This document shows positions 9,856-56,272 of a DNA stretch of 64,000 bases, one piece after another. The first letter of the stretch is position 1. Each line of letters starts with the position of its first letter. The notes beneath the pieces were generated by a model that saw only the letters and a list, made by a program, of their open reading frames with translations, was not told the DNA's origin and made no database searches. The DNA is from Daucus carota subsp. sativus (taxonomy: Eukaryota > Streptophyta > Magnoliopsida > Apiales > Apiaceae): NCBI RefSeq assembly GCF_001625215.2, contig NC_030383.2, forward strand, positions 58,766,949 to 58,830,948, in the 5' to 3' direction. The translations under genes and the position numbers were made by a program.

Positions 9856-13358
<3,503 letters not shown>

Positions 13359-13646: not shown

Positions 13647-14454
13647 TCACATGAAAAGGACGACCAGCAATACAATAACAATAACCAAAGCCATAAAAGT
13701 AAGTTGTAAAAAGCTCCGAGTTTCAAGATTTGATGATTCCTGCATCGCGGCTGCTTGTGATGTTAAAGCTGCAGTAATCTGCTGCCATGCTTCAGCATCA
13801 TTTGTTTCTGCAGTAATAACTCCAGTTGGCAACCTTGACTCGATATCATGTGGGATGTCAACATTTTCCGCGACTGAATGGCAAATTTCACAGATGCTGA
13901 GAATGATAAAAAATAAATAAATTAGTTTTCAATTTTAAGATAATCAAGAACTATCTGAATACTGCAATAACAGTAAAATAAGATTTAATAAATTTGAGGG
14001 TAAGTAAAACTCACTTATTTCCTTTGATTTTGAACCATGTATCTGCACAATGCTGATGCACTGCAGCCAAATCATCCTTACAAGAACACCCTAACTCCAA
14101 AGCCAAACCATACTCCTTGTCTTGAAGACTCAAATTACAGATTCTACAGTCTCTGTCCTCTGTCCCCGAAAAAATTGTTAAAATTGTATGTTCAGGAACT
14201 TCCTTATCAATATCAACCACACAATCTGAACCGACCACAGACGAGGCTCTATCAGCATCCAAAACTCGTTCACTTTCAGTTTCGGAATCAGAATCAGAAC
14301 CAGAGCCATGAATTGAACTATTGGCTGTTGAATACGACGAAGAAAAACAGGAATAACCCTCCTTATCTTCCGAAAGACGTATATTATCCTCATCATAATT
14401 TTTCACAGCCGATGAACCAAGTCCACCACCGCATTCTAAATCAACACAGTTCAT
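13647..14454 (-). CDS. RING-CH (RINGv) tail-anchored protein, array copy A
   Basis: Probable membrane-bound E3 ubiquitin ligase. Exon 1 is 14454-14015 and exon 2 is 13896-13647, joined in phase 2, giving 229 aa. The N-terminal 100 residues are acidic and serine-rich. The RING-CH C4HC3 finger begins at Cys103: CRIC, then CSCKDDLAAVHQHC (C-x-C-x7-H-x2-C), then WFKIKGN, then the last ligand pair CEIC in exon 2. The intron therefore cuts the finger between its sixth and seventh ligands. The protein ends in one hydrophobic segment (FMALVIVIVLLVVLFM), so it looks like a tail-anchored protein with the RING in the cytosol. The start is the first ATG of the frame. A leader motif AAGTGGCTT upstream is shared with copies D, F and G. 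The linker here lacks the STN repeats of copies C and E. Confidence 0.85.
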
Positions 14455-15235
14455 CTCAAACCCTCAATGTAAGATACTCAGACCTGAATCACGATAAGCC
14501 ACTTTAGTGTACTAGCAAAGAACTTATAAGTAAAAGCTACACAAGCTCCGAACAGTAACAGAAAACCAGAGCTGCAAGTTATGAACGTAGTAATAATTTA
14601 TTCTATAACATGCATGTGGGAATGGTTATACGGAGATCGTTGCGGAGACCTGGCCGATGAAAAATAAAACAAATATCGCTGTAAGATTTTCCAATATGTT
14701 CTTTACTTGTATCGAAACCTAACACTTGAAGTTATGTTTTTCTATGTCAGATTAGTTTTCTAACTTAAGGAGAAGTATGAAAATTGTCCAGGAGAAATAG
14801 ATGTCGATTAGGATTCGAATTGTAGATTGCGAGTTGTAAGTTGTAATTAAGATCAAAACCAATTTTTTTTCAATTTTTTGATATTTTATGAGTATTTATT
14901 GTTATTTTTTTCGGTTTATATTTATGATTATTGTTCTATCAATATCTTTGATTTCTTTGATATCTTGAGCAAAAATATTATCATATTTTTTTATTAAATT
15001 ACTTATTTGCTTGTATTTTTATCTTAAAGAGCACGCATATTAATCAAATTATAACAGCATTATTTTTAAAATATATTTTTAATTACTTTTTAGTTTAATT
15101 ATTCATATTTAAACTCATGTTTGAAAAGATATACTTTGGTTAATTTTATTCTTGGATATATGTTTTTATAATATTTCTATATAATGTATTCAATTAGGTT
15201 TATACAGATTAATAATAATATATAGATTTTAATGG

Positions 15236-15852
15236 ATTTTGGATTCGGGCATACCCGAAACTCGAATATTTTTGGATTGAATATCCGAAACCTGAACCCG
15301 AAATCTGAAAATATTTATAATTATATATATTCCAAGCACTTGAAATCGCCCACGCTACATGGAGCACTAATAAGAGATAGAATTTTTATATTTCAACTTC
15401 AATCATTATATCACAATATCATTTTGGTTTATATATGTATAATTAATATTTTTTAATCAACCCAACTAATAATATTTATCATTACAAAATATTATATTCA
15501 CCACATTATCCTTTTGAATTATGTTATAGTTTAATTTTGTTAATTATTAGTCAATTTTTAGGTTGAAGATAAATATATGTTCTAAAAATTATACAATAAT
15601 ATATATATATTTATATATAATATGTGATATATAAAGTTATATATAAATTTTATATAATTATATATATATATATATAATATTATATATTCAGGTTTTTTTG
15701 GGGTTTCGGGTTCGGATCGGGTTTCGGATTTCGGATTGGGTTTCAGATCCGTATAACTAATATCCAAATCCAAAAAATCGGGTTCGATAAATCCAAAATC
15801 TTGGATTTCAGATCGGGTATCCGTCGGATTGGATTATGTTGCCATCCTAATT
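15236..15852. repeat. Short-repeat hAT-like element (TTCGGGT / CCGAAA type)
   Basis: Both flanks are built of GGATTTCGGGTTCGG-like words in opposite orientation (CCCGAAAC near 15255, TTTCGGGTTCGG near 15700), with AT repeats between. The right end reads TTGCCATCCTAA, like the TTGCCACTCCT end of the element in the BSK intron. The left border is not sharp. Nearby AT-rich intergenic DNA (14455-15235 and 15853-16190) shows nothing else I can support. Confidence 0.5.
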
Positions 15853-16190
15853 ACTTTCTATAATATATATGAGAATTGCGGAGCCGACGAAGAATGGAAG
15901 AGGAGCGGGATGAGGAATTCCGTGCCATAAATTTTAGGGGCTTATCATTTTATGATTACAAATTGACACGTGCGAACAGTTCCGGATCAATTGAGGTGTG
16001 TAAACACTTGCTAGGACACGGATAAAAAAACAATAATTCTTAGCTTAACATTGATTTATCAATTAGTGCTATCAGAACAATCTCCATACAACAATTCACG
16101 ACAGAAAAAAAAGTTAAATTACGACGTAAGTCATCTTATTTAAAAACTAAAAGGACTTATTTGGTGTAGTTGATCGTACTTTTTGGCATG

Positions 16191-17196
16191 TCATACTGCC
16201 ATGTGGAAGTGAAATATCCATATGAGGAAGACTGCAAACACCATACATGCAAACATAGAATCCAGCAACAGATGACCATATGAGAACGAAGGAGTCACTA
16301 TATTCGATGAAACAGGCGCTGAGGCTGCATTTTCAGACAAAGTTAAGGCTTCACTTGCTTGCTGTGGTGGTTCCATATGATCCGAGGCAACGACATTTTG
16401 TGCAATTGACTTGCAGATTTCGCAGATCCTGAGGATGATCAAACATCACAAGGAAAAACAAATTATTTAATAATACGAGAAAAATCATGTAAAGATAAAT
16501 GCACGGGTGTTGGTCTCAAATGTCACTATTTAGCAGCAAAAGGTCTCTATTGTCATTTTCTGAAAAAATGGCCTCAACTGTCAATTCAAAACACAAATTC
16601 GTGTTGTGTTAACAAAAACGCAGCTTCAAGACGTGTTTTTCACGTAAAAGTCAAAACGTAATTTCAAGTAGTGTTTTGAAATGACAATTGAGCCGTTTTT
16701 ACGGAAAATGACATTAAGACCCACTTAACTTAAAATAATGACTTTTTGGACCTTCTCAGATGAATAGAGGTTAAAAAACAACTAACCTATTTCCCTTGAT
16801 TCTGAACCATGTCTCAGCACAATCTTGATGGGCTGCAGCCAAATCGTTCTTACAAGAACATCCTAATTGAATTGCGGTTCCAGATTCTATGTCACTCCCA
16901 CCCTTCTGAAGACTCAGATGACATATTCTGCAATCTCTTTCCGCTGTCCCCAACAATAAGTTAAAATCAAGAACATCACTTTGTATATCGACAGAGCACT
17001 CTGTTTTAACCAGAGTCAACACTCGTTTAGAATCAAAAACTTCCTCATTTTCACAATTAATGAAGTTATAGCCATCAATTGAACTGTCAGAGTTCTCCGA
17101 AAAGGACAGGCTTGCCTCATAATCATCACTCAAAGAGGAGGAAACGCGGTCATCACCACACTCCAAACTAAGACAAGCAAGCTCAAGACTCTCCAT
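16191..17196 (-). CDS. RING-CH tail-anchored protein, array copy B
   Basis: Same architecture as copy A. Exon 1 17196-16787, exon 2 16428-16191, phase-2 junction, 215 aa. I start at the ATG at 17196 (MESLELACLSLECG), which aligns with the LECG found near the N-terminus of A, D and F; the frame is open to 17373 but the extension is unlike the other copies. The finger starts at Cys89: CRIC, CSCKNDLAAAHQDC, WFRIKGNR, CEIC. The tail segment ends WIFHFHMAV, close to the WLFHFHMP ending of D, F and G, and its hydrophobic core (FACMVFAVFLIWIF) should span a membrane once. The 358-bp intron holds an inverted-repeat element. Roughly 320 bp upstream lies a sequence block also found upstream of F and G. 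Confidence 0.85.
16511..16722. repeat. Inverted-repeat element in the intron of copy B
   Basis: The left side reads TGGTCTCAAATGTCA and further in CTCAACTGTCAATTCAAAAC. The right side, read on the other strand, gives GGGTCTTAATGTCATTTTC and CTCAATTGTCATTTCAAAAC. The two arms mirror each other over about 80 bp with mismatches. It is noncoding and about 210 bp long, most likely an old MITE. I could not define target duplications. Confidence 0.55.
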
Positions 17197-17499
17197 CGAA
17201 GAAGAATAAGACAGTGAAGTGAAAAACTCATAAAAAAAATGATCATCTTGTATTTTTATAAAGGTGCATGGTGGAGAAGCTGATGTTAGAATAAGTGGGG
17301 AGTGGTAATATTTGGAAGAGTCTTTTTGAACTTTTTCTTGGACTAAATTGTTTATCCGACTGACAGTCGTCATCTGATCATGGATTTTCGATACACAAAG
17401 TGTAAATTCGAGTAGGGATTCATCAAAATGAAGTCATACAGATTGACTGGGAACTTTGGTGTACTGAAAGAATACTTGGGCATGAAGAATTCCCAAAAT

Positions 17500-17600
17500 A
17501 TATTGTGGAGATAACTATAGTGCACATACACTTTTAAGTAGAGAAGCACCATTCACCCATTTGATGCATGTCATCGACAGGTAGACTTTCTACCTTTTCA
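17500..17600 (-). promoter_or_regulatory. Upstream block shared by the RING-CH genes (copy B instance)
   Basis: Read on the + strand, TACACTTTTAAGTAGAG followed by CCATTTGATGCATGTCATCG is closely similar to sequence upstream of F (about 28950-29070) and G (about 31995-32095), and to an orphan copy at about 29725-29865. It probably came with the duplicated promoters. No function is shown. Confidence 0.5.
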
Positions 17601-18044
17601 CTCTCAGCATGATTTTTCTTTGTGGTTTTAAACCAGATTTTTTATTTTTGATTTTTGGATATTCAAACTGAGCTTGGACTGAGATTTACAAACATCAAAT
17701 AATCCTGAAAAATAAATAAAAAAAGAAAAAGAAAAATTAATTACAATATTTTATTATATTTAATTTTAAGTTTTTTAAAATAATCAAATAATAAGCTGTA
17801 AAATTTTGTCAAAAATAGGTTAATTTGATCATTAAAAAGTTAACATCATCGCAACTAATCAGGATGATGGAGTACTCCAAATTCGCACATGACGTGACAA
17901 ACTATTTTAATGGGATGGTTTATATTTATACAAGACCATAAATGTGAATGTGAATAAGACCTATCAAATATTATTAACATAATAAAATTTGGAAACAAGT
18001 TTTGGATCTTACATTTTCCATAAAAGTTTTATCAATCAGATTAC

Positions 18045-18208
18045 GCCGATTTGGGGTAAAATTAGAGGTAACTAACAGCTATTTACCAAACATAACCGTT
18101 AATTCAATCCACTAGTCAAAACACCTATTTCAGTCAATTAGTCAAAACATCTGATTCAATCCGCTAACATCTAACCGCTTACCGCTAATTCCTAAACATG
18201 GCCTGCAT
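18045..18208. mobile_element. Harbinger-like element fragment
   Basis: The sequence from the CTAACAGCTATTTACCAAAC region through CCGCTAATTCCTAAACATGGCC is the reverse complement of the left end of the larger element at 48681 (GGCCATGTTTGGAAATTAGC). Only one end is recognisable, so it is a truncated or solo-end copy. The rest of 17600-19265 is AT-rich with a (TA)n tract near 18664-18682 and no supported gene. Confidence 0.5.
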
Positions 18209-19265
18209 GTTTAATATCAGATTATGAAAACCAGAACAAAAGCATCATTAGTATAAGATTATAAATCAGCCCCAAGATCTCCAACCCTGTGCATCTGTTA
18301 GCTATAATATCTAGCTGGCATGCTGTATGCCTAATAGCTTCAAAAATGGGCCACTCCAACGGGCTCACCTCTTAGGTATATTTTTACCTACCGCAAAACA
18401 AGTACGCTACATCTGTTGAATCAAGACCGTCATCTATATTACATCCACGTCAGATTCTTCTCAAACTTATACATATATTCACATATTCAATAATTATATT
18501 AAGTCTATTACTAGTTTAGTTTTATATTTAAATTTTATTTTAATTTTAAATGTATATTTTAATAAATTTAGTTATTAAGTTAATAAAGCAAATATAATTT
18601 TAACTTCTTAAAAGTTGAACTAAACTGTAAAAAGACATACTTTATTATTTATAATAAAAATATTATATATATATATATATATTAATTTTTAGATATAATA
18701 TATGTTTCTCACTTTTAAAATTTACATCAATTTAGAGCTAGATGAAAATATATTTTTTTATATGAAAATAAATTTATATGTTAATCAATCTAAAAAATAG
18801 GAAAGTTTATGTCAAAACAAGAATAAAAGGTGAAAGATATATAAGTTGGTCATATAATCACATGTGAAAATAGTAAAATGACATATTTTTAAATAATAAT
18901 GTTATTTTAAATTATTATAATAACATATATATTTGTATAAAAAATTAGCGTAAAATTTACGTTTATAATTCAGAAAATAATTTATTTTTTATATTTATAT
19001 AAAATATTTATTTAACTGAATTTATAAGAAAGTTATTCAAGAAATTCATTCACAAGAAGTAATTATTATTTGAAAAAATAATTATTAGACTTTGAAAATA
19101 ATAAAATAACAGAATTTTAAAATATAGCTAATCATTATAGCTAACACCACTGGAGCAAAAAGCTTACAGGTTCAGCAAATTTTTAACTAATCATCTATAT
19201 TTACACTTTTAGCTAACAATTATAGCTATCTCTCTTGGAGATGCTCTGATACATGTTCCTGTGTA

Positions 19266-19527
19266 CTCCCTCCGTCCCCTTTTACTTGTCCCTTTTGAAA
19301 AAATAACGCATCTTAAGAAAATGTTAGGTGGATATCTTGTTTTCATACATATCCCTAATAAATGTAATGAATTAGATAGAGTTGTGTATATATATATGCT
19401 AGTCAAACATTGGAAGTTGTTACATTTTGAAAAAATATACAAAAAGTTGCTTTGAAAAGAGAAGTGGACAAGTAATTTGGGACAAAAAAAAATTTCAAAA
19501 AGGACATGTAAAAGGGGACGGAGGGAG
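19266..19527. mobile_element. Stowaway MITE
   Basis: 262 bp bounded by CTCCCTCCGTCCCCTTTTAC on the left and its near-perfect inverse GTAAAAGGGGACGGAGGGAG on the right, flanked by TA on both sides (19264-19265, 19528-19529). The terminal inverted repeats are typical of Stowaway (Tc1/mariner). It lies immediately 3' of copy C and may form part of its 3' UTR or terminator region. Confidence 0.9.
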
Positions 19528-19541
19528 TATCAATTAAAGAG

Positions 19542-21624
19542 TCACCGAAGAAACACCACAAGGAGAACAATAGTCAGCAAGCCGATGAGTATTGCACACA
19601 CAAAACATAAGCAATATTGGCATCGTGAAGTAGATTCTTCAGCTGTCGGAGTTACTGGCTCTAAAATTGCATATGTCGCAAATACGTCGTTTGCAGATAC
19701 CGGGACTATAATTGCATCTGTCGAAAGTACTGCAGGCTGTAAAACTGCATTATTTGTCGAAGATGCTGGCTGTGAAATTTCATTTATTGGAGAAGTAATG
19801 ACTTCATATATGGGTGTTGATACTTCATCCATAGAAGAAGTGTCGTCTTGATCAGAGAACTGCTGCACCCATTCGATATATCTTGGGATGGCCACAGTCT
19901 GTGCGATTGAATGGCAGATTTCGCAGACGCTGAGAACAATGAAGCAAATCAGATAACATACAAACAAAGTGTTAATCAATTTGAGAAAAATCAAGAATTA
20001 TATGCATTCTGCAAAGCACAAACAAGGAACTTTCGATAAATTAAACATAATTGCAATCACGTACGGATCTAGTAAGAGGCACGTGACAGTGTACCCCTAA
20101 ATTGTTTTTTAACATATTTTCATTATTCTAAATTTTACCAAATTATAGAAGTGTTCTTGGAAAAAAATCGAAAATATATAGTTGTTTTTCGAAAATTTGA
20201 TTGATACCCTCCCAAGAAAACAATTCTAGATCCGTCCCTGATTATATGGGGATACAAACGTACGTGATTATAAAACAAACTAAATTTGTTCCTTAAATAT
20301 ACAGTCATTAGAGTATCTCCAACTACAGTTAAACCTCTTTAAAGTAATATCCCTCGGACCGGGAAAAAATATTACTTTACCGAATTTATTATTTTATCGA
20401 TATAATAATATTTTATTACTTTATCGATAAAATAATATTTTATTATTTTACCGAATTTCTATATATTTACAAATTATAATTCATTATTTTTAAAAACAAG
20501 AATCGGTCACATGCAATGTATTTGATTTAAAATTATTTTTATAATATTTAATAATATGTGAAAACTAAATTCATGCATGCATTAGACGATAGCAATATCA
20601 TCCCAAGCGTGTCATCAGAGTAAGCACTTCAAGCAATCAACACTTTAAACAATTACTTGTTACAACACGAGCAAAGCATACCAGGAGTTATTTATACTTT
20701 ACATAAAATCAAGGATGAGGTTAATTTTGGCCTTGGTGAGAAGAAGAAACAAGCTAGTACAGATTCATATTTTAAAAAGAACTGAATTTTGTAATTTATA
20801 TACATTATGTATATATATAATTCATGAATTATTACTTTACATATTACCTGGGCCTTTAATGAATTTTTAAATTTTTATTATCTTATGCTTTTAGCGAAAA
20901 TATTACTTTACAACATTGGCCCAAGTTGGGACCGACAAAATTAATTACTTAAGCGAGATTATTACTTTATCGGATATTACTTAATCGAGGTTTAACTGTA
21001 TGAGAAGCCTTTAGCTAAAAGTCTAGGTGGAAAAAATTTAGCCAATGTCCACAAAAAACATCACTCCAACCATAGCAAACCATTGTCTATAATTATAGTC
21101 ACCCCCTATGATGATTATATTTGTCGAACCGCTACAGATCTGTAATGAATTTCACGTCATCTCTCGCAATTTATTTACCTCCTTCCCGTGGATTACATAT
21201 AAATTATTACCATATCAAGCTGATATATATTATTTATAACAATCTAAATATTACATAATGTCTTACAGATCCAATTTAGCTAACGATTATAGCCAACGCC
21301 ATTGGAAATGCTCTCATATGGACAAAATTTAAGGATGACAAGAACTTACTTATTGCCTTTTTTTATGAACCACTTTTCAGCACACTGCTCATGGACCACC
21401 GCCAAATCATCCTTACAAGAACACCCTAATTTAAAAACACTTCCTGCAGGCTCCGAATCAAGACTCATCATACAGATCCTACAATTTCCTTGCACCTTCT
21501 CCTCGGGAGATCTAAATTTATCAGCAACGTCCTCGATATCAACAATAACATCTGTACTATTGTTATTTCTCAAGGAACTGTGAAAATCACCGCACACATC
21601 ACAAGCCATCTCAACACTCCCCAT
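19542..21624 (-). CDS. RING-CH tail-anchored protein, array copy C
   Basis: Exon 1 21624-21350 and exon 2 19929-19542, phase 2, 220 aa. The start is the MGS ATG, matching MGS starts in D, E, F and G; an upstream in-frame ATG at 21648 is possible. The N-terminus is much shorter than in A/F/G: the finger begins at Cys48 (CRIC, CSCKDDLAVVHEQC, WFIKKGNN, CEIC). The linker after the finger is long and built of loose repeats around SSTN and PV (for example ISQPASSTNNAVLQPAVLST). The C-terminus CLCFVCAILIGLLTIVLLVV is a single membrane segment. The 1.4-kb intron carries two transposons, one shared with copy E and one pogo-like. C and E form a clear sub-group by N-terminus, linker, leader and promoter. 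Confidence 0.85.
20061..20240. repeat. Intronic repeat shared with copy E
   Basis: Bounded by GTACGGATCTAG and CTAGATCCGTCCC, which are inverse to each other. The interior (AAGTGTT...AAATATA...TTTTCGAAAATTTG) is closely similar to 24726-24918 in the intron of copy E. It is probably a small TIR element that entered the common ancestor of C and E. Confidence 0.6.
20324..21000. mobile_element. Pogo/Emigrant-like Tc1-mariner element with transposase remnant
   Basis: Perfect 14-bp terminal inverted repeats TACAGTTAAACCTC (20324-20337) and GAGGTTTAACTGTA (20987-21000), including the TA typical of this superfamily; the CAGT-AAACCTC end is that of plant Emigrant/Lemi elements. At 20582-20785 the + strand encodes the C-terminal end of a pogo-type transposase: LDDSNIIPSVSSE, then after one TAA stop ALQAINTLNNYLLQHEQ, and KKKQASTDSYFKKN before a final TGA. 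The catalytic part is gone, so the copy is not autonomous. It lies in the intron of copy C. Confidence 0.75.
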
Positions 21625-21699
21625 CTTAACAGGTGAATGCTTCTTCAACCACTACACAAAAAGCGGCTAATTTCGATTTGCTACGTAAATTATTATGTT

Positions 21700-21860
21700 G
21701 TTTGTAAATTAGCTGCGTGTGCTTATTTGAAGGGATGTAAATAGGGTAGCAGTATCCGCGTAGTTTATGTGTTCTAATCTTTATCGGATGGAAGTGATGG
21801 CTAGAGTTCCATTCTGTATCTATGTCTTGGAACGTTCTAAGAAATATAAACACCTATATT
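21700..21860 (-). promoter_or_regulatory. Promoter-proximal block conserved between copies C and E
   Basis: About 140 bp here (around GGGTAGCAGTATCCGCGTAG and CTTGGAACGTTCTAAGAAAT) is nearly identical to 25467-25605 upstream of copy E. On the minus strand it precedes the coding start by roughly 100-230 bp. It contains CTATTTACATCC here and the more TATA-like CTATTTATATCC in E. Confidence 0.55.
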
Positions 21861-22430
21861 CATGTAGGTTTCTCGTATATATTATTATCTCATGTAGAGG
21901 CTAGAGCTATTATAAACGGATTTGAAATAAACAAGATTATGAGAGTTATATATGAAGATCGGCATATCTTAATATTTATTATTTTATTGTTTACATTTTA
22001 TTTTTATATTTTTTTTTGGAATTTACTTTTTATTGTAATTTAAGATTTATCGAGATAATATAAAAATAGTATATAATGTTTTAAAATATGGTGGTTATTA
22101 GAATTTATATATTAATATATAATTTTGAAAAATGTATTAGTATCATAATAATATATGCATGACAAATATAATTGGATATATTATATGATCTAATAATATT
22201 CTAAATATATAATTATATTAAGTTAAACTAAAAATAAATATAAAATATTATGACATTACAAATCATAAATATTTAGTACACTAGTTACAAATATTTAGTG
22301 CTAAGATTTATAGCAACTATCATAATCGTAAATATTTAGTGTTAAGAGTTATAATAATAATGGGTTGTAATTGATCGATTACGCTCAGTAAATAGAAGTA
22401 TTATTTGATATAAAGAATGTAGGAATCAAC

Positions 22431-22527
22431 TGATTTTTTTTCCTTTTTAGCAAATGTAACCAATGATTTTTTTTTCCTTTTTAGCAAATGGAATGATTTT
22501 TTTTCCTTTTTAGCAAATGGAACCAAC
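22431..22527. repeat. Short tandem repeat, three copies
   Basis: Three tandem copies of TGATTTTTTTTCCTTTTTAG followed by CAAATG and a variable spacer (about 33, 29 and 34 bp). They lie in AT-rich DNA between copies C and D. The remaining sequence from 21860 to 23113 shows no gene. Confidence 0.8.
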
Positions 22528-23113
22528 TGATCTAATTATATGATCGAAGTTGTGATCGTTATAGCGGTTGTAATTTTAGAAAAATGCAAAACCGTGTGCG
22601 TCTGGAATCACAATTTTCTTTTAATGAAAAAAATCAATTAAAGAAACTTAATAATCTTCCCTCGAATTATAAGAAGATTATGAAAACATTATATTTCATA
22701 ACCTATTATTTTATTATATTTCGGGTTACTTTGTTTGTTCTAGTTAAAATTTCTCAATTCCTGCTTAAAATATGAATACTACGGCTGGTACCTAAGTGTA
22801 TGCGTGCATGAATTCCTTTTACTTTTTTTTCTTAAATTTCATTTTCTAAATTCCTTTACTTTTGTTGTTTTAAATTCAACGTTTAAGAGTGCATATCACA
22901 GAACTGTAGTGAGAATTCTCTTTTCCCTTTTGCTTTTGAAATACATAAACAACTACAAAGAGCTAAAAATAATAATTTGAATCCAAATCCAAATACTATT
23001 AATATTTACAATAGAACCCCTACATATAAGGTTAGCACACAAAAGTACTATATATTCTTACCTACACAAATACCACAAAGCTAATTAACAATTTCTTTCT
23101 CTCCTATACCATT

Positions 23114-23741
23114 TCAAAAAGGCATGTGAAAGTGGAATAGCCATGACAGGAAGAAAACAGAAACTACACATGAAAGCAGAATATTGACCAGTTGGTGTCC
23201 TATAAAGAATGTCAAAGTCTCTGAAGTTGATGGTGAATTTGTTGCTGAAGTTGATGCTGCTGGTACAGGATCTGCATTTGTTGAGTAAGTACTCAACTCA
23301 GCAATCTGCTGCGTCGATACAATGTCACTGGGAACAACAACATTACGTGCAATTGCATTGCAAATTTCGCAGATTCTGAAAATGAACAAGTGTAACAAGA
23401 AAAAACAGATCATGTTTAGGATTTAGAAAAATCAAGAACCATATTAGAATATGATATGATCCTACTAAGCCAGAAGTGGTCACGTAACATGATGTCAATG
23501 GAACAATCTGATCCAACAGATGACGCTCTTCTAGTATCCAAAACTTCATCAATTTCAAATCAGAATTGAGACCATCAATTGAACCACCAGAATTTGAGTA
23601 GAACTGTGTATGACAAGAACCCTCCTCGGCTTCTGAAGTACATGTACTTCTCTCATCATCATCGTCATCAACATCCATGATGAACAAATTGGAGCCAAAA
23701 CCGCACTCTAAATCAATACGCGTAATCTGTAAACTTCCCAT
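23114..23741 (-). pseudogene. RING-CH array copy D, zinc-finger core deleted
   Basis: Very close relative of copy F. Exon 2 is whole (23375-23114, 262 nt like F) and encodes CEICNAIARNVVVPSDIVST through a membrane segment ending WLFHFHMPF. Exon 1 keeps the start (MGSLQITRIDLECG) and acidic region from 23741 to about 23490. There the sequence jumps straight into what is intron in F: roughly 270 bp holding CRIC, CSC..H..C and the splice donor are missing. A 1-bp loss in an A run near 23560 also shifts the frame before the junction. The open frame then reads through former intron. The protein, if made, has no RING, so the copy is probably a pseudogene. Confidence 0.8.
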
Positions 23742-24049
23742 CTAAGATATCCAATGCAAAGTAGTTGGAAGCCACTTTACTTGGTAATTCAGGAAAGCAA
23801 ACTTCCCATCTATTATTTTATGTTATAATTCAGCACAACATTTTCAACAACACCTTAAATGACCAGCTGAGTCTTTAGTATCAGATTATAAAACCACAAC
23901 AAAAATACGAACATTTTTATTTTACCTGATTAGAAAAAGAATTCAAGCAAACAGATACATAGCATTCCATGGAACTGTAAAAGTAGCTAGTTCAATAGTG
24001 ATACCGTCTGCAGCCCCAAGACCCTAGACCAAAGACATGTTCCTATGTA

Positions 24050-25362
24050 TCAATTATAGAGTCGTTGAAGAATCTCCATAACGATAACCAAAGTGATCAG
24101 AAAGCAGACGAGTTTTTCACAAAAAGAATCTACACAATCTATGCAATATTGGGTTCGTGAATTAGAAACTGCCACCCCAGCTGCATTTGTAGAAGATACC
24201 GGCACTGCATCTGTATAATTTGTCGAAGAAACCGGAACTAAAATTGCATTTGGTGGAGAAAGATCAGCTTCATATACAGGCACTGATACTTCATCTGTCG
24301 AAAATGCTGGCTCTAAAATTGTGTATGTCGGAACTAAAATTGCATTCGTCGAAAATAGTACAGGCTGTAAAACTGCATTAAATCTCGAAGATGCTGGCTG
24401 TAAAAATTCATTTGTTGCAGAAGTATCGACTTCAAATACGGGTATTGATACTTCATCTATTGAAGAAGTGTCGTCTTGATCAGAAAAATGCTGCACCCAT
24501 GGGACGGCCACATTTTGTGCGATTGAATGGCAGATTTCGCAGACGCTGAGAACGATTTAGCAAACAAGAGAACATACAAACAATTTATTAGTTGATCTGA
24601 GAAAAATCAAGAATTTTGTGCATTCTGCAAAGCATAAACAAGAAACTTCTGATAAATTAATATAATTACAATCAGCAAGTTAGCATAAACAAGAAACTTC
24701 CAAAAAATTAATATAATTGCAATCAAGGACGGGACAAATCTGGCACCGGCCCGGACATCCGGACATGTATCCCTCTAAAAAAAATTTGACGTTTTTTCAT
24801 CATTTTAAATTTTATAAAATTAAAGAAGTGTTTCTAAAAAATTTAAAAATATACAGTTTCTTTTCAAAAATTTGTTTGGTATCCATCTAAGAAAGAAAAA
24901 CAGTTTTAGACCCGTCCTATATAAAGGATAATGACGTAAGTGATAATGAGACAAACTAAATTTATTCCTGAAATATACTGTCATCTTATGCATTAACAAA
25001 ACGAAGAATTAACACAACATTCAACAAGAACAACACAGTTTTTTTTTTTTAATAGAACACAGTTTTAATTAGTAAATACGGTGAGAAAGACAAAAATTAA
25101 GGATGATAAGAACTTACTTATTGCCTTTTTTTATGAACCACGTTTCAGCACACTGCTCATGGACCGCAGCCAAATCATCCTTACAAGAACACCCTAATTC
25201 AAAAACACTTCCCGCAGACTCCGAATCTAGACTCATCATACAGATCCTACAATCTCTTCCCACCGCCTCCACGGGAATTCTAAATTCGTCAGCAAAGTCC
25301 TCGATATCAACAATAACATCTGTACTATTGTAATTTCTCAAAGAACTATTATGACTCCCCAT
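24050..25362 (-). CDS. RING-CH tail-anchored protein, array copy E
   Basis: Exon 1 25362-25118, exon 2 24545-24050, phase 2, 246 aa. Start is the first ATG (MGSHNSSLRNYNSTD). The finger begins at Cys38: CRIC, CSCKDDLAAVHEQC, WFIKKGN, CEIC. The linker is the longest of the array and consists of degenerate repeats of the form NAILVPVSSTN and STDEVSVPVYE. The C-terminal hydrophobic segment (KLVCFLITLVIVMEIL) is shorter than in the others and ends RLYN. Closest to copy C in every part. The 572-bp intron holds the repeat shared with C. Probably a functional membrane E3 ligase, but the weak tail makes membrane insertion less certain than for F or G. Confidence 0.82.
24726..24918. repeat. Intronic repeat shared with copy C
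   Basis: Similar over most of its length to 20061-20240 in the intron of copy C, at the same place relative to exon 2. Ends GGACGGG and CCCGTCC are inverse. It predates the C/E duplication if the shared position is confirmed. Confidence 0.6.
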
Positions 25363-25683
25363 CTTAAGACGTGAATGCTACTAAAAGCGGCTAATTTCGA
25401 CCGACTACGTAAACTATTACGTTGTTTGTTTTGCAAAACCTCGACGTCAATGACACAATATTTACTGCGTGTGCTTATAAGAAGGGATATAAATAGGGTA
25501 GCAGTATCCGCGTAATTTATGTGTTCTAACCTTTATCGGATAGTGATTGCCAGAGTTCCATTCTGTATCTTGTCCTTGGAACGTTCTAAGAAATATAGAC
25601 ACCTTTGTAAACACGGATAAGATGTAGCTAAATTCATATCCTAATCTATTTAACTTTATCGGGTTTAGATCGAATCGGATTAA

Positions 25684-26290
25684 GGGTCATTTGGCAAATC
25701 TGAACTAAGTACTATATCTGATTGAATAATATATCTGAATCAATAAAATATCTGAATAATGCTGAATAATAAATATCATTTGACATATAAATTTCAGTAA
25801 TATATGAATGATTTTATTTCCAAATTTTCTAATTAATTAATTAGTTCAACTAAGAAAATTATAAAAAATCTTTATTAAATAAACAAAAAAATAATGAAAG
25901 AATCTTTTAAGCTTCATGCAAACAAATAATAACTAATTCATAAATTGTTAGCAAAAAAAAAAAACTAATTCATAAATTGTAAAAACACTTTTTTTGCACA
26001 CTATAAAGCTGTAAAATTAGTAATCATTTATATTTTTATTAAAGCTGTTAATCTATTTATTATCTACATGAATTTGTAAATAAGTCTAAACCATGCTTCT
26101 GTCAATAAAAAAAGTCCAAATCATGCTAATTCTCCGTGGGTGCACACAGCTGAATTGATAAGACAGAAAATTAAGCAGGAATGAGTCAGCATAATATGTT
26201 TCGCTCAGCTATGTGGAAAAAGATTATCAACTGAGATTAATTGGTCAGTTAAGCTCATTAAGCATTATTAAGCAGTAAACAAATGAGGCC
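25684..26290. mobile_element. Harbinger/Tourist-like MITE
   Basis: 607 bp flanked by TAA on both sides (25681-25683, 26291-26293). The ends are GGGTCATTTGGCAAAT and, inverted, GGCCTCATTTGTTTACTGC, in the style of PIF/Harbinger MITEs. No coding capacity. It lies upstream of copy E. Confidence 0.7.
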
Positions 26291-26293
26291 TAA

Positions 26294-27508
26294 GACTCTG
26301 ATATTTTACAAATCAATCCATATCCGAATGATCGTTGAAAATCGGAATGAGATCCGATCCACTAAAATTTATGAAATATATTTTTGCATCATGGACAAAT
26401 TATTAATCTTTCCTAAAGAAAAAAACTGAAATATATTCATGAATTAGTAAAAAAAATTGAAATTCAATCAAAGTTATTTATAGCGACATGGACTAACCAT
26501 GATGAACACATATTTTATGTGGCAACTATAAGAATTAGTAAAAATAACTAAAAAGAATTATTTTTTTGAAGAAATCTATAAGATCTACAATCAGTACAAT
26601 TTATAATTTTGATACAAACTTTCGTATCCACGAGGTTTAACAAGTAATTATGATGATAAAGTAGCTTACTTGACACATTAAAATTATTCAAATTAATATA
26701 ATAAAAAAATAATGAAAATAATGAGACACTAGACAAGCACATCTTCACTTGTTTTCATGTTATTTGTTAAATCAAAACTAACAACTATCATACTATCAAA
26801 TCACAATCCGTCAATTATTCTCAACTAGAATATATATGTGACATATAAAAATTAAAGAATTAAGCAGAATAATTAATATAAATTAACCTTAAATAAATTA
26901 TAAAAATTATCAAAATAACTTATTCTCTGGTACAAGATGATGAAAACCCTGGGATCTTCTGTGTAGCGTGGGTTCATGAATTAAAAAATTATAAATTATT
27001 AAAAAAAAACAATTATATTTATTAAAGAATAGGCAATATGTGGGACATACGTGTATAAAAATATGCAAATAAGGGAAAGATACTTAACAAGTTAGATTGG
27101 TAAATTTAACCATGATTTATTTTTATTTTTTATATAATTTTAATAAAAGAAAAAATGACAAAAATGACAAGTTGACTGGATTTCTTGGTTAATAATCATA
27201 GTAAATTTATAGATTTTTTGGCAAAACAATGACAAGTTGATTGGATTTCTTAATTAATAACTCTTCTCAATTTAAGGTTCAAGAGTGCATATCTGAACAA
27301 AACTGTAGTGAGAATTCATTCTTCTTTTTCGCTTTTGAGATACATAAACAACTACAAAGAGCTGAAGAAAGTAATAATTTGAATCCAAATACTATTAATA
27401 TTTACAATAAAACTTCTACAAATAAGGATTATCACACAAAAGTACTATATATTCTTATAACTGCACAAATACCACAAAGCTGGAAATCTAGTTGCCTAAT
27501 TAGGAATT
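26294..27508. other. AT-rich spacer between copies E and F
   Basis: No gene or element ends recognised. From about 27270 to the end of copy F the sequence is similar to 22880 onward next to copy D (AAGAGTGCATATC, AACTGTAGTGAGAATTC), marking the left edge of the D/F duplication. Confidence 0.55.
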
Positions 27509-28401
27509 TCAAAAAGGCATGTGAAAGTGGAATAGCCATGACAGGAAGAAAACAGAAACAACACATGGAAGCAGAATATTGACTAGCTGGTGTCCTATAA
27601 AGAATGTTAAAGTCTCTGAAGTTGATGGTGCATTTGTTGCTGAAGTTGATGGTGCTGGTCCAGGGTCTGTGTTTCTTGAGTAAGTACTCACCTCAAGAAT
27701 ATGCTGCGTTGATACAATTTCACTGGGAACAACAACATTACGTGCAATTGCATTGCAAATTTCACAGATTCTGAAAATGAACAAGTGTAACCAGGAAAAA
27801 CAGATCATGTTTCGGTTTGGAGAAATCAAGAACAATATTAGTATATAATATGATCCTGGTAAGCCAAAAGTGGTCACTTAACATGGTATCAGAGTTCAGG
27901 CTCACAATAAATACTTCTGAAATTTGGTTAGAGAAGACAAAATTAAGGGTTAAATAAAACTCACCTATTTCCTTTGATTTTGAACCATGTTTCAGCACAA
28001 TGCTGATGAGCAGCAGCTAGATCATTTCTACAAGAACACCCGAGTTCGATTGTGATTCCAGACTCCACATCACTCCCATGAACTTGAAAACTTAAATGAC
28101 ATATTCTGCAACCTCTTTCCAATGTCTCCGAGACATCGTCACACTCATTTCCGATATCAATGGAACAATCTGATCCAACAACAGATGGAACTCTTCTAGT
28201 ATCCAAAACTTCATCAATTTCAAAATCAGAATTACGACTATCAATTGAACCACCAGAATTTGAGTAGAACTGTGTATGACAAGAACCCTCCTCGGCTTCT
28301 GAAGTGCATGTACTTCTCTCATCATCATCAACATCCATGATGAACAAATTGGGGCCAACACCGCACTCTAAATCAATACGCGTTATCTGTAAACTTCCCA
28401 T
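27509..28401 (-). CDS. RING-CH tail-anchored protein, array copy F
   Basis: Exon 1 28401-27965, exon 2 27770-27509, phase 2, 232 aa. Start MGSLQITRIDLECG. An acidic, Ser-rich N-terminus (DVDDDERSTCTSEAEEGS) precedes the finger at Cys98: CRIC, CSCRNDLAAAHQHC, WFKIKGNR, CEIC. A short linker rich in Ser/Thr/Ala (STSATNAPSTSET) leads to one membrane segment, VNILLPCVVSVFFLSWLF, and the ending HFHMPF. All eight zinc ligands are present. It is the intact sister of copy D, and the duplication includes flanks on both sides. The leader has AAGTGGCTTCC some 35 bp before the start, as in A, D and G. Confidence 0.87.
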
Positions 28402-28939
28402 CTAAGGTATCCAAAGCAAAGTAGCGTAGTTGGAAGCCACTTCACTTGGTAGTAGTAAAAACTTTGAAGTAAAAGCTTTGGAAGTTAAGAGTCCATTAGA
28501 AAGTTAAAAAATTAGCATATATAAAACCACTTAATACATTGAATTTAATTCAAAAGTAACAGAAAAAACAGACTTGCGACATACTACAGGTATCATGAAA
28601 CTCCCACTATACAGAAAAAAATTAATATATAGTAAGGGGTTCATATATGATCAATTTTACTTACTTGTAAGTACTAGACAGTGACGAAGAAAGGACAGAG
28701 TGTCAGTCGAGGGATCTGGGGCTCCATAAGTCTGTATATGGAAGCGCGGAGAAAGGGGGGGAGAGAGGAAGAGAGATGGTGGAAGAATTTACAGTTTGAA
28801 AGAGAATGAATATACTGTACTGTATTGCAGATTTTAACTCAAGGAATGGAGTTATTTGGTTGTTTTCAGAATCTTTCAAAAGAATTTACTTGTGCATCAA
28901 GAATTCTTTATGATATCAGTATATTGTACTAAAAAGGCC

Positions 28940-29070
28940 TTTAATCAGAGCACTCTCATAAAGTGTATGCACACTTTTAAGAAAGTAGAGGCATTGTCGA
29001 ACCATTTGAGGTCATCGACATGTAGACATCCTTGCTTTGCACCATCAGGATGATCTAAAATGCCAGCCTT
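28940..29070 (-). promoter_or_regulatory. Upstream block shared by the RING-CH genes (copy F instance)
   Basis: On the + strand, CACTCTCATAAAGTGTATGC, TTTTAAGAAAGTAGAGG, CGAACCATTTGAGGTCATCG and GATGATCTAAAATGCC. The same order occurs upstream of G (31995-32095) and, partly, B (17500-17600). Confidence 0.55.
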
Positions 29071-29724
29071 CCATATCCATATAAAAGTCTTGTTATATTT
29101 AAAACTTTTTTAAGGTATCAATGTTTCTGAGATCATAATGCCATTATTTAAGCGGATTCCTTGATATTTTTGATCGGTCAAGTATAAAATTTATCACCAG
29201 CAGCTTCCTCTTTGTTTCAGGTAGACATCTTTACAATCAGATAACAGACTATTATCAAACGAAGAACTATCCCTAGGTTTTTGTTCACCTGATACCAATG
29301 TTGTTTATAGTCCAACAGGGCAGCGCATACCAGTATACGACTCTACTCTTGGTAACAAGAGATTGGAATCAAAATTCAAGGCAAAAAGCTTGCAGAGTGC
29401 AAATCTTTAAAGAACATACAATTCAAATTTATTGTTGGCCTTCTGCTTTAAAGATTAAGAAGTTCAATAGAAAATTAGAAAGGGTCGAAGGGGAATGATG
29501 CTGTCTTTTTTTTAGTTGCTTATTCAATGATATGAAGTTATAGGATGTGGATATCTTTAGTCTTTACACTCTTTAGTCTACGTAGGAAAAGGGGCATTTC
29601 CACAAGGACAAGGACATGAAATTGAATACACCCGCCTAAGTGATGATACTCGCGCACAAAGACACGACTGGGAATCTTTATCATGCTAAGATATATGAAA
29701 ATATATATTTTATCAGAAGAATCC

Positions 29725-29865
29725 TTTAGTGATGGCACTTTCATGAAGTTGGTCTTTACACTTTTCAGGAAGTTGAGGAATCTTCCAACCTAGTCCATGT
29801 TCATCAGTATATGATCATGCAACAATGCCTCGACCGTCTTACCTATCAACATGATCTAAAAGCCC
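29725..29865 (-). promoter_or_regulatory. Orphan copy of the RING-CH upstream block
   Basis: TGGCACTTTCATGAAGTTGG, TTACACTTTTCAGGAAGTTG and, further on, ATCAACATGATCTAAAAGCC match the blocks upstream of F and G, but no gene follows in the right place. It lies 1.3 kb upstream of F and 3' of G. It could be a remnant of a lost array member or a duplicated promoter. Confidence 0.4.
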
Positions 29866-30149
29866 AAAGCTTTCCATATCTTTTTAGGATACTAATTAAC
29901 TTCACACAAGTTATATGTATGCATTTGATGAAATAGTAATTGACTTCAAATTGTTTTGAAGTTTGAATCAGGATAAAAGAAACACTCTGATTATTGCTAA
30001 ATTTTTTACAAGAAATAAAAATTCTGGCACCTTCAGGCTTCACATGTATCAAAAAACCTCTTCAGCTATGAATATGCTCAAGGTAGTGTCCGAAATATTG
30101 CTGCTCTCTATGATTTCTTTTCTCATCGAAACAAAATTCTTCGGTAGCA

Positions 30150-31693
30150 TCATGAAGGCATGTGAAAGTGAAAAAGCCATGACAGAAAGAATGCAAAAAC
30201 AATACAGGCAAGCAGAATGTTGACGAAGCGGTGACCTATTAAGAATGCCCGACTGTCTGAACGCGACGAAACTGGCACTGAGGCTGCATTTGTTGGAATA
30301 GCACTGACTTCACGAATCTGCTGCACCGATTCAGTCTCAATTGGACCGACAACATTTTGTGCAATAGAATGGCAAATTTCGCAGATCCTGAGAGAGTGAT
30401 GAAATGTAACAAGTAAAAAACAAATTATATGTAGATTTTAGGAGATTCAAAAACTATCTGCATCATGTAATCAAGATGACTCAAGACAAACATAGCTGCG
30501 TGCTTCTCTAGTTCTCTATAATTTTTCGACAATCCTTATTTGTTAGAACTCTGAATCAAATTTTGCCGCGTCATTGCATAAAAGGACCACAGAAAAGGAG
30601 ACAGAGTGGGAAAGAACAGTCTGTGCATATGAGAATATCACTAATCTATCCAATTGCTTTTTATAACTTTTGCTTTTTTATCTCAATTATTTCCTGCGTC
30701 AGCGCAATAAAAATTCTCCTTTCTTAGATATACCGCAATTTTCTAAAAATAACATATCGAGATATACATGTACAGATTAATCAATGCTATTCTGTTAGAA
30801 CTGAATGGCTGTGAGTTGTAGTTTGTTGCTTGCTTTTGTCATGTAGCTCATGGCCCAGGAAGTTTCTTTACTCAATTCTTAGCAGAACAACAAAACATGA
30901 TGCATGACTTTTGTGCTCTTCTTTTAGCTATCAAAACATGACCAAATTACAGAGTACAAAAAAGCAATTATGCCGTGTAAGACTGAGCTATGATACCATG
31001 TTAAGTGACCAGTTCTCCAAAAAACTCAAGGCGTTGGGGGGAGGGCTTAACAGGATCATATTGTATTCTAAAAATATTAAACAACGTTGTTGAGGAAAAT
31101 CATCTATGATTAAGTTAACTCCTCGTAACGAGTAAGGCATGCATGCCGGAGAAATCACAAGACTATCAACATGAACACCGCAATTCAAGTACATACTATG
31201 CAACAAAGTGAAAGAACATAGAAATTAAGGTAAAAAGAACTTACTTATTTCCTTTGATTTTGAACCATGCCTCGGCACAATGTTGATGAGCTACAGCCAA
31301 ATCATTCTTACAGGAACACCCCAATTCGATAGCATCTCCAGATTCTAAATCACTACCATCCCCCTCCCCTCGAATACTCAATTGACAGATTCTGCAATCT
31401 CTCTCCATTCTCTCCAAGAAAATCTTAAATTCATGAACTCCATTTTCCATATCAACAGAACAATCTGAACCAACCACAGATGACACTCTTCTAGAATGCA
31501 AAACCTCATCAATTTCAGAATCATAATTATAGCCATCAATTGAACCATCAGCTGTTGAGTAGAACTGAGAATAACAAGAACCCTCATCAGCTTCCGAAAA
31601 ACATATACTTTCCTCATCATCATCATCCAGGACCGACGAATCCTGACCACCACCGCGCTCCAAATCAACACAATTCATCTCAGAACTACCCAT
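30150..31693 (-). CDS. RING-CH tail-anchored protein, array copy G
   Basis: Exon 1 31693-31245, exon 2 30387-30150, phase 2, 228 aa. Start MGSSEMNCVDLERGGG. The acidic N-terminus (DDDDEESICFSEADEGS) is followed by the finger at Cys100: CRIC, CSCKNDLAVAHQHC, WFKIKGNK, CEIC. Exon 2 is close to those of D and F: a short linker with TNAASVPVSS, then FVNILLACIVFAFFLSWLF and the ending HFHMPS. Exon 2 has no ATG of its own in a long ORF, so it is easily missed. The intron is 857 bp without recognised insertions. All zinc ligands are present. This is the array's right-hand end; no further copy is visible beyond 32100. Confidence 0.87.
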
Positions 31694-34860: not shown

Positions 34861-35400
34861 ACATTTTTAAAGTTTTTTTTTTTTTGCCGCGAATAGAAAG
34901 GTTTCATTAAGCTTTCAAATCATTTAACAGTACATGATGAAAATCAGAGTGGACATCTCCCACCCGCCAAACACGATCAGCAATTGAATAGCTATATCTC
35001 GCTAGATAGTGAGCTACCCTTTTCGCGGACCGTTTAACAAACTTGAATGTTACGTTTTTGTCACTTAAGCCTGCAAGCATGTCTCGACACTCTTGAATCA
35101 CTCTTCCCAGGTAAGAATAACAAGAGAAAGAGCACTGAATGGCCTGGACTACCTGCAAACAATCAGTTTCCAGCACCACGTTCATCAACTCCTTTTTTTT
35201 TACCCAGCTAAGCGCCTCTCTTATCCCAATTGCTTTAGCTAGGTCCGAGCTTGGCTTTCCTCTCAGGCACTTCGATCTTGCTTCTACTAACCTTCCTGCA
35301 TGATCTCGAACAACGAATGCATGGCTATAGCAATCTGTTTCTTCAAAGATAGCTGCATCGGAGTTTATCTTAACTCTGTTCATCATTGGAGTGTGCCAGT

Positions 35401-36626
35401 TACGGGTGTACATGAATTGTCCAAACCGTTTAACTCAACCCAAACCGGCCCTATTTTTGGCCCAACCAAACCGAAAAATCTAAACCGTTATTTAATTGGG
35501 TTGAATTTGCTCCAACCGGGTTCTAATGGGTTGGGCATGGTTTTAGATTTTATTGGGCCAACCCAACCCAACCCGAAGGTATTTTAATAAAAATATATAA
35601 TATATATGTATACCTTACACAAAGCAGGAGACATAAGCTCAAAGTCTCAAACCCATTTATATAATTCAAGTTTACTAGTTAATTCTTAGTTGCAGACTAG
35701 CATGTCCCATTATATATGTATTACTTCAGTGTACAAGTGTAATTGACAGTGGCTTACTTTTCTTTTTCTAGGAGTAGATACTGGAACCAAGTGTTTTCAC
35801 CAGTGTTCTAAAAAGCGCATTAAGCGGCCGTCTAAGCGGGCGCTTAAGCGGAATCGGAGGGTAAAACGCTTCGATTTTATATTAAGCGGGAGATTAAGCG
35901 TTTTTTAACATTAAGCGGCCTGTTAAGCGGATTAAGCGGACATTAAGCGGATTAAGCGGTCAGAATGATTTTGACTTGCTAATTTTTTATATTTAAATAC
36001 AAATATTTTTTTATAAATATTATGAAAATTATAATAAAATATTAAAAATATCTTTTTTATCAAAAACATTTTATGTTTAAATTCTTATTACTTAATTATT
36101 TTATAATTTTAATTATATATATAATATTATTATATATATAATTTTAAATATATATTATTAATCCGCTTAATCACCCGCTTAAAATTCCGCTTAAGCGTCC
36201 GCTTATCCGCTTAAGCGCTAGAAGGTCATCTCACTGCTTAGGACCGATTTGCGCTTTTTACAACACTGGTTTTCACAGTATTATACCATCTTTATATTGA
36301 TGGGTGACGCTTTCTTTATGCATGACTTCCTTGTTATTTCTTTCTTTTTCAGACACGGATAAATACTCGCATCACCTCTTAGCAATTCTTAAAATGTTTG
36401 TTTGAATCTGTGTGTTTCTTTTTTTATATAGGAGCTTTTTTTTAAAAATTTAATAGTAATTTAACCGTACAAACCGGCCCAACCCAACCCAACCCGAAGT
36501 ACGACAAATTGGATTGGGTTGTAAATTAATTTTAATGGGTTGGGTTCAAAAAATGACAAACCGAAATTAATGGGTTGGGTTGATAAAAACCTCAAACCGG
36601 GCCAACCCGGCCCGCGTACACCCCTA
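35401..36626. mobile_element. hAT-like element of AACCC-repeat type, inside the LINE
   Basis: 1226 bp splitting the LINE between zf-RVT and RNase H. Target duplication GTGCCAGT (35393-35400) and GTGTCAGT (36627-36634), 7 of 8 matching. Ends TACGGGTGTAC and, inverted, TAGGGGTGTAC. The sub-terminal zones are arrays of CCAACCCAACCC and CAAACCGG words; there is no transposase. It is itself split by the element at 35801-36268. Confidence 0.85.
35801..36268. mobile_element. hAT-like element of TTAAGCG-repeat type, nested
   Basis: 468 bp with perfect 8-bp target duplications GTTTTCAC (35793-35800, 36269-36276). Terminal inverted repeats CAGTGTTCTAAAAAGCGC and, inverted, CAGTGTTGTAAAAAGCGC, 17 of 18 matching. 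Both flanks are packed with TTAAGCGG words in opposite orientation. Noncoding. The perfect duplications suggest the youngest of the three nested insertions. Confidence 0.9.
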
Positions 36627-56239: not shown

Positions 56240-56272
56240 TTCTTTGTATGTTTTTAATGCTTATAGTCGTGG

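What the first reader, a model, noticed from the sequence alone, without database searches (positions are those of the whole stretch)
13647..31693. Tandem array of seven tail-anchored RING-CH proteins
Seven same-strand two-exon genes in 18 kb. Each intact copy keeps C4HC3 RING-CH ligands, an intron in the same place inside the finger (phase 2, before the last Cys pair), and one C-terminal hydrophobic segment with no sequence after it. Known animal and viral RING-CH ligases (MARCH, K3/K5) usually have two or more membrane segments, so a clustered, tail-anchored form is a distinct architecture. The acidic N-termini and linkers vary strongly while the finger is stable, as expected if substrate or membrane choice is diversifying.
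Basis: partly seen in the sequence, partly recalled or inferred. Interest (0 to 1): 0.72.

Follow-up and report, generated by a model that had tools for sequence, protein, structure and literature searches.

The report
Tandem plant membrane-anchored RING-CH ligase genes
A plant chromosome carries a row of six apparently intact genes and one broken copy for small membrane-anchored ubiquitin-ligase-like proteins; they look like a local multiplication of an ordinary plant gene family, unusual mainly because the membrane tail, nearly fixed in single-copy relatives, has changed in the row.

Summary
In detail: six intact two-exon RING-CH genes and one pseudogene (c4) on the minus strand at 13647-31693. 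Pfam RINGv is above cut-off in 6 of 6 intact copies. Each has a phase-2 intron before the last CxxC and one C-terminal hydrophobic segment. The 'distinct architecture' claim fails: the same 441-Mb genome holds at least eight relatives outside the array with the same intron and a C-terminal hydrophobic tail. The array is a tandem expansion of an ordinary plant RING-v subfamily, best fitting the 'undescribed' group Fv05 of PMC6118397 (not tested by sequence). A single-copy homologue sits tail-to-tail with a BSK-type gene in a collinear block on another chromosome. The surprise is the tail: omega is 0.04 in five singletons and 0.27 in c2, c6 and c7 (p 5e-6), while c1, c3 and c5 carry other hydrophobic tails. 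The youngest pair shows coding constraint: 9 of 9 coding indels are multiples of 3, against 4 of 21 in the intron. Ligase activity, topology, membrane and substrates are inferred, not shown.

The parts
13647..14454 (-). c1: intact RINGv gene; exon1 14454-14015, exon2 13896-13647, 229 aa; non-family hydrophobic tail
16191..17373 (-). c2: intact RINGv gene; exon1 17373-16787 (family-type Met at 17196), exon2 16428-16191, 274 or 215 aa; family-type tail
19542..21624 (-). c3: intact RINGv gene; exon1 21624-21350, exon2 19929-19542, 220 aa; intron 1420 nt; replaced tail
23114..23741 (-). c4: pseudogene; frameshift in exon 1 and deletion of the exon-1 part of the finger with the splice donor; exon 2 still readable
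24050..25362 (-). c5: intact RINGv gene; exon1 25362-25118, exon2 24545-24050, 246 aa; replaced tail, repeat-bearing linker
27509..28401 (-). c6: intact RINGv gene; exon1 28401-27965, exon2 27770-27509, 232 aa; family-type tail
30150..31693 (-). c7: intact RINGv gene; exon1 31693-31245, exon2 30387-30150, 228 aa; family-type tail
9993..13358 (+). BSK-type gene, tail-to-tail with c1: the 3' ORF (13080-13355) matches the BSK1-like TPR model PF25575; ORFs from 9993 on are collinear with chromosome C8. Not a full gene model; the kinase part was not confirmed (2 upstream ORFs scanned, no Pfam match)

Best explanation
The array is a local tandem expansion of one member of a plant RING-v (RING-CH) subfamily of small proteins with a finger and a C-terminal hydrophobic anchor. 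The parent gene lay tail-to-tail with a BSK-type gene in a block that also exists on another chromosome, where a single intact copy remains. On this chromosome tandem duplication gave seven copies, including one two-gene segmental duplication, and one copy decayed. Proposed mechanism (inferred): each protein is inserted by its C-terminal segment, exposes the finger to the cytosol, binds an E2 and ubiquitinates proteins in or at the same membrane; the conserved tail of the singletons acts as a membrane or partner address. In the array the finger is kept while tail and linker have drifted or been replaced, so some copies may have altered membrane or partner choice. Steps shown by sequence: gene structure, family, collinearity, finger constraint, tail relaxation; single origin has moderate support. 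Steps inferred: ligase activity, topology, retargeting. The confidence given is for family, origin and kept finger; the retargeting step alone is at the odds given in the section on the most novel reading, so it overlaps with the rivals.
For: RINGv above cut-off in 6 of 6. Relatives with the same phase-2 intron and a C-terminal tail: L009 minus, L010, L012, L013, L014, L015 (spliced), L054 and L055 (exons read). Array is one clade: 86/87 in the protein tree, 84% of 200 bootstrap trees, and 81 in the codon tree. C8 block collinear: RINGv gene L010, BSK-type gene tail-to-tail, then a gene with a PAP2_C match. A BSK-type TPR also lies about 13 kb from L013, convergent. Tail omega 0.039 in five singletons vs 0.27 in array copies c2, c6, c7 (LRT 20.9, p 4.9e-6); finger 0.084 vs 0.146 (p 0.13), array finger omega below 1 (p 9e-14). 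c3 vs c5: 9 of 9 coding indels are multiples of 3 vs 4 of 21 in the intron, Fisher p 5e-5.
Against: No transcript, protein or biochemical evidence. c3/c5 dN/dS is about 0.9 and even the finger contrast in that pair is not significant (p 0.11, approximate site counts), so relaxed constraint on the way to loss is possible there. Array monophyly support is moderate and six of 12 inner branches of the protein tree are open. The membrane segment is a hydropathy call only. The omega fit used a topology fixed by me and one optimiser start, and one branch is very long (L013 8.4). L054 and L055 were found after the tree and omega runs and are in neither; L015, c1, c3 and c5 were left out of the omega fit.
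Confidence: 0.8

Rival explanations
1. The array is mostly dying tandem debris: only one or two copies (c7, perhaps c6) do the ancestral job, and the tail changes in c1, c3 and c5 are loss of constraint, not retargeting.
For: c4 is broken; c3/c5 omega is about 0.9; the tail is relaxed in the array; a decayed extra copy lies about 49 kb from the C8 singleton (L056) and two copies with exon 1 but no exon 2 found exist elsewhere, so decay after duplication occurs in this family.
Against: Six of seven copies keep complete C4HC3, splice sites and open frames. All nine c3/c5 coding indels are multiples of three. The replaced tails of c1, c3 and c5 are still strongly hydrophobic (19-residue maximum 3.05, 3.26, 2.22). 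Array finger omega is 0.15 and array tail omega is below 1 (p 1e-6) for c2, c6, c7.
Confidence: 0.3
2. Diversifying (positive) selection on linker and tail, as in an arms race with pathogen or transposon proteins.
For: c3/c5 omega is 1.0-1.2 in N-terminus, linker and tail while the finger is 0.28; c5 differs from c3 by in-frame insertions in the repeat-bearing linker.
Against: Values are not clearly above 1 and rest on 26 synonymous changes; no site test or population data; older array pairs have linker omega 0.3-0.8 (five pairs).
Confidence: 0.12
3. A distinct clustered tail-anchored RING-CH architecture, as first proposed.
For: Animal MARCH and viral K3/K5 proteins usually have two or more membrane segments (general knowledge, not tested).
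Against: The same architecture occurs in the eight unclustered relatives found in the genome.
Confidence: 0.03

Closest known systems
Plant RING-v group Fv05 of PMC6118397 (4 A. thaliana proteins, 'undescribed')
   Same: RING-v finger; exactly one CDS intron in A. thaliana and rice; Stone groups 1 and 24 (no-domain and transmembrane classes) (passages read)
   Different: AT5G01070, next to BSK10 AT5G01060, is my recalled candidate orthologue, not tested
Animal MARCH and viral K3/K5 RING-CH ligases
   Same: RINGv finger; weak sequence matches of c7 to K3 (1vyx, E 0.0074) and to chain 2d8s (E 0.24)
   Different: Those have two or more membrane segments (general knowledge); here one C-terminal segment by hydropathy
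Plant RMA (RING membrane-anchor) ligases
   Same: Small E3s with a finger and a C-terminal membrane anchor (general knowledge; the family is listed as FHC06 in PMC6118397)
   Different: RMA is listed as RING-HC with no CDS intron; no relation outside the RING fold was tested
Doa10/MARCH6 and plant CER9 (group Fv03)
   Same: RING-v finger, membrane ubiquitin ligase (general knowledge; Doa10 abstract start seen in the listing)
   Different: Large polytopic proteins; 8 CDS introns for Fv03

Membership tests
RING-v / RING-CH (PF12906) | C4HC3 ligand order with seven residues between ligands 4 and 5 | tested here: met
   6 of 6 intact copies over the Pfam cut-off; ligand pattern with C-x7-H in 6 of 6. 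c4 fails: the exon-1 part of its finger is deleted
Plant subfamily defined here by intron and tail | single phase-2 CDS intron between ligands 6 and 7 | tested here: met
   6 of 6 array copies and six spliced singletons; L054 and L055 agree on reading their exon ends (the L055 acceptor was seen only through its reading frame)
Plant subfamily defined here by intron and tail | conserved C-terminal tail ending W-L-F-H-F or close to it | tested here: inconclusive
   present in c6, c7, c2 (W-I-F-H-F) and six of the eight singletons, altered in L015 and L055; absent in c1, c3, c5, which keep a hydrophobic tail
Group Fv05 (PMC6118397) | one CDS intron, RING-v, members in the transmembrane or no-domain class | tested here: inconclusive
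   features agree; sequence motif (LOGO 8) and member sequences could not be compared
MARCH / K3 family | two or more membrane segments beside the RING-CH finger | tested here: not met
   one strong hydrophobic segment per protein, 6 of 6 (hydropathy only)
Tail-anchored proteins | single C-terminal TM with few residues after it, inserted after translation, N-terminus cytosolic | tested here: inconclusive
   sequence part met, 1-7 residues after the segment in 6 of 6; insertion and topology not testable here
E3 ubiquitin ligases | ubiquitin transfer with an E2 | not testable with these tools
   inferred from an intact finger only

The most novel reading that the evidence does not exclude
The array is a set of retargeted ligases: after duplication the finger stayed fixed while the normally near-invariant membrane tail was swapped (in the c1/c3/c5 lineage) or loosened (c2, c6, c7), so tandem copies now act at different membranes or on different partners from the ancestral protein.
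Probability: 0.3. Interest if true: 0.5.

Novelty: new member of a known kind. Interest (0 to 1): 0.32.

Why it matters
The best-fitting published group is listed as 'undescribed' (PMC6118397), so the subfamily may lack a known function. A tail as strongly conserved as, or more than, the finger in the singletons suggests the tail is a specific address or docking site rather than a mere anchor, and the array offers natural tail variants on the same finger to test that.

Tried and rejected
Array-specific architecture: rejected, since relatives elsewhere share it. Viral or microbial relatives: none confirmed. In viral contigs 41 stretches matched a pattern and none was confirmed; in genome contigs 56 and none; these are viral and prokaryote collections, so this says nothing about plants. 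Paper searches for a tandem plant RING-CH cluster or a tail-anchored plant RING-CH protein: I saw none in the rows listed (20 of 70 papers listed; 14: 1 of 1; 15: 1 of 1; 23: 11 of 11; 24: 4 of 4; 32: 25 of 26,502; 61: 15 of 23). These are listings of open-licence papers judged by title and start of abstract, so they do not show absence from print. Papers of which I saw passages: PMC6118397, PMC10094387, PMC12916425, PMC6713694 and PMC6165103; the last four name AT2G45530, AT5G01070 or AT2G37950, and the passages seen give no protein sequence, so they do not tie these genes to the array. All other papers: listing only. An own-genome search with c5 did not complete, so c5-like copies elsewhere were sought only through PF12906 and c7, both of which give lower bounds.
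Full report
Observation. Seven minus-strand copies lie between 13647 and 31693. Six can be spliced into intact proteins: c1 229 aa, c2 274 aa (215 aa from the Met that aligns with the family), c3 220, c5 246, c6 232, c7 228. All six introns are GT-AG, phase 2, and fall just before the last CxxC. All six carry C4HC3 with C-x7-H spacing and exceed the RINGv cut-off (34.0-44.9 bits against 21.6). Each has a single strong hydrophobic C-terminal segment with 1-7 residues behind it (weaker linker windows in c3 and c5 stay below 1.6). The fourth copy, c4, is a pseudogene: against c6 (92.7% identical over 686 aligned bases) it has a 1-nt frameshift and a large deletion that removes the exon-1 half of the finger and the donor site.

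History inside the array. Self-comparison suggests that c3+c4 and c5+c6 are copies of one two-gene segment: 21321-21855 matches 25089-25604 at 79%, 22873-23497 matches 27269-27891 at 86%, and 23491-23786 matches 28153-28451 at 90%. NG86 dS is 0.22 for c3/c5 and 0.7-1.6 for the five other array pairs tabulated, so the array mixes one more recent duplication with several older ones.

The rest of the genome. The window lies in a 441-Mb genome of 11 contigs. A RINGv scan gave 36 matches at E 1e-3 or better, six of them the array; a search with c7 gave 36 exon-level matches at E 0.01 or better, array included; both are lower bounds. Reading these loci gives eight intact-looking relatives outside the array with the same intron: L009 (minus strand), L010, L012, L013, L014 and L015 were spliced, have C4HC3 and one strong C-terminal hydrophobic segment; L054 and L055 were read exon by exon and their hydrophobic tails judged by eye. 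There are also broken or partial ones: L009 plus strand and L011 (exon 1 found; no exon 2 found within about 14 kb) and L056, a decayed copy about 49 kb from L010. Hence finger, intron and C-terminal anchor belong to the wider subfamily, not to the array alone.

Origin. L010 on C8 lies tail-to-tail with a BSK-type gene, as c1 does in the window (BSK-type stop 13358, c1 end 13647). The TPR end of that gene matches PF25575 (BSK1-like TPR); two ORFs further upstream gave no Pfam match, so the kinase part was not confirmed. The gene beyond it (window about 3.7-7.3 kb, with a PAP2_C match) is also present in the same order on C8. L013 on C5 also has a BSK-type TPR about 13 kb away in convergent orientation. 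The simplest reading, inferred, is that the pair was copied by block (whole-genome type) duplication, and that one descendant was then multiplied in tandem. In the protein tree of 15 rows (12 family members, three other RINGv proteins) the array is one clade (86/87; 84% of 200 bootstrap trees); in the codon tree of the 12 the same split has 81. Support is moderate, six of 12 inner branches of the protein tree are open, and L015 and one outgroup are long branches.

What selection shows. In the singleton pairs L010/L012 and L009r/L014 the last part of the protein (about 33 residues) has dN 0.03, against 0.07-0.12 in the finger, 0.27-0.28 in the linker and 0.38-0.50 in the N-terminus. A codon model written here, with a topology fixed by me, shared branch lengths, one optimiser start, eight proteins (L010, L012, L014, L009r, L013, c2, c6, c7), 53 finger and 28 tail codons, gave tail omega 0.039 in singletons and 0.27 in the array (LRT 20.9, p 4.9e-6), while finger omega was 0.084 and 0.146 (p 0.13); array finger omega is far below 1 (p 9e-14) and array tail omega is also below 1 (p 1e-6). 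I did not test whether tail and finger differ within the singletons. Some branch lengths are long (L013 8.4), so absolute values are rough. c1, c3 and c5 (tails do not align) and L015 were left out; L054 and L055 were found later. In c1, c3 and c5 the family tail is gone, but the ends are still hydrophobic; the trees group these three (96/94 in the protein tree, 90 in the codon tree), which fits one replacement in their ancestor.

Are the fast copies real genes? c3 and c5 differ by nine internal coding indels, all multiples of three, against 4 of 21 in their intron (Fisher p 5e-5; the alignment was not codon-aware, and part of exon 2 is repetitive, so its gap placement is unsure). That speaks for maintained coding function after their split, despite dN/dS near 0.9 (finger 0.28, other parts 1.0-1.2). 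The finger contrast in this pair alone is not significant (p 0.11). Positive selection is not shown.

What it is likely to do. By family, RINGv fingers act as E3 ubiquitin ligases (general knowledge of the MARCH, K3/K5 and Doa10 families); here this rests on the intact finger only. A cytosolic finger with a C-terminal anchor would ubiquitinate proteins at its own membrane. Because the tail is so conserved in singletons, I infer that it is read by something specific: a partner in the membrane or a targeting system. The array keeps the finger and varies the tail and linker, so altered address or partner is a live possibility (0.3), with simple decay as the main rival.

Known relatives. That fits the gene structure here, but sequence membership was not tested. 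From memory only, AT5G01070 lies next to BSK10 (AT5G01060), which would extend the BSK link to Arabidopsis. No plant genome other than the window's own was available, so copy number in other species and transcripts remain open.

Noticed in passing
L056 (C8:1480500-1489500), about 4362-4700: A decayed RINGv copy (best match c7, 67% over 27 residues), about 49 kb from the single C8 gene, suggests the C8 locus also once had an extra copy.
   Followed up: partly
L009 (C3:54518500-54528400): Head-to-head inverted pair: one intact RINGv gene and an exon-1 copy 91% identical at protein level, without a detectable exon 2 within about 14 kb.
   Followed up: partly
L011/L020 (C9:40910500-40928400): Exon-1 copy 90% identical at protein level to the L012 gene on C7, with no exon 2 found within about 14 kb: perhaps a partial duplicate.
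   Followed up: partly
window 34907-37103: Retrotransposon remains (RVT_3 and zf-RVT matches) just upstream of c7, at the edge of the array.
   Followed up: no
window 53337-56260: Two long minus-strand leucine-rich-repeat frames (receptor-like); only the upstream one was scanned with Pfam and completeness was not checked.
   Followed up: no
c5 exon 2, about 24182-24464: Internal repeat (70% over 124 bases) in the linker, longer than in c3 by in-frame insertions.
   Followed up: partly
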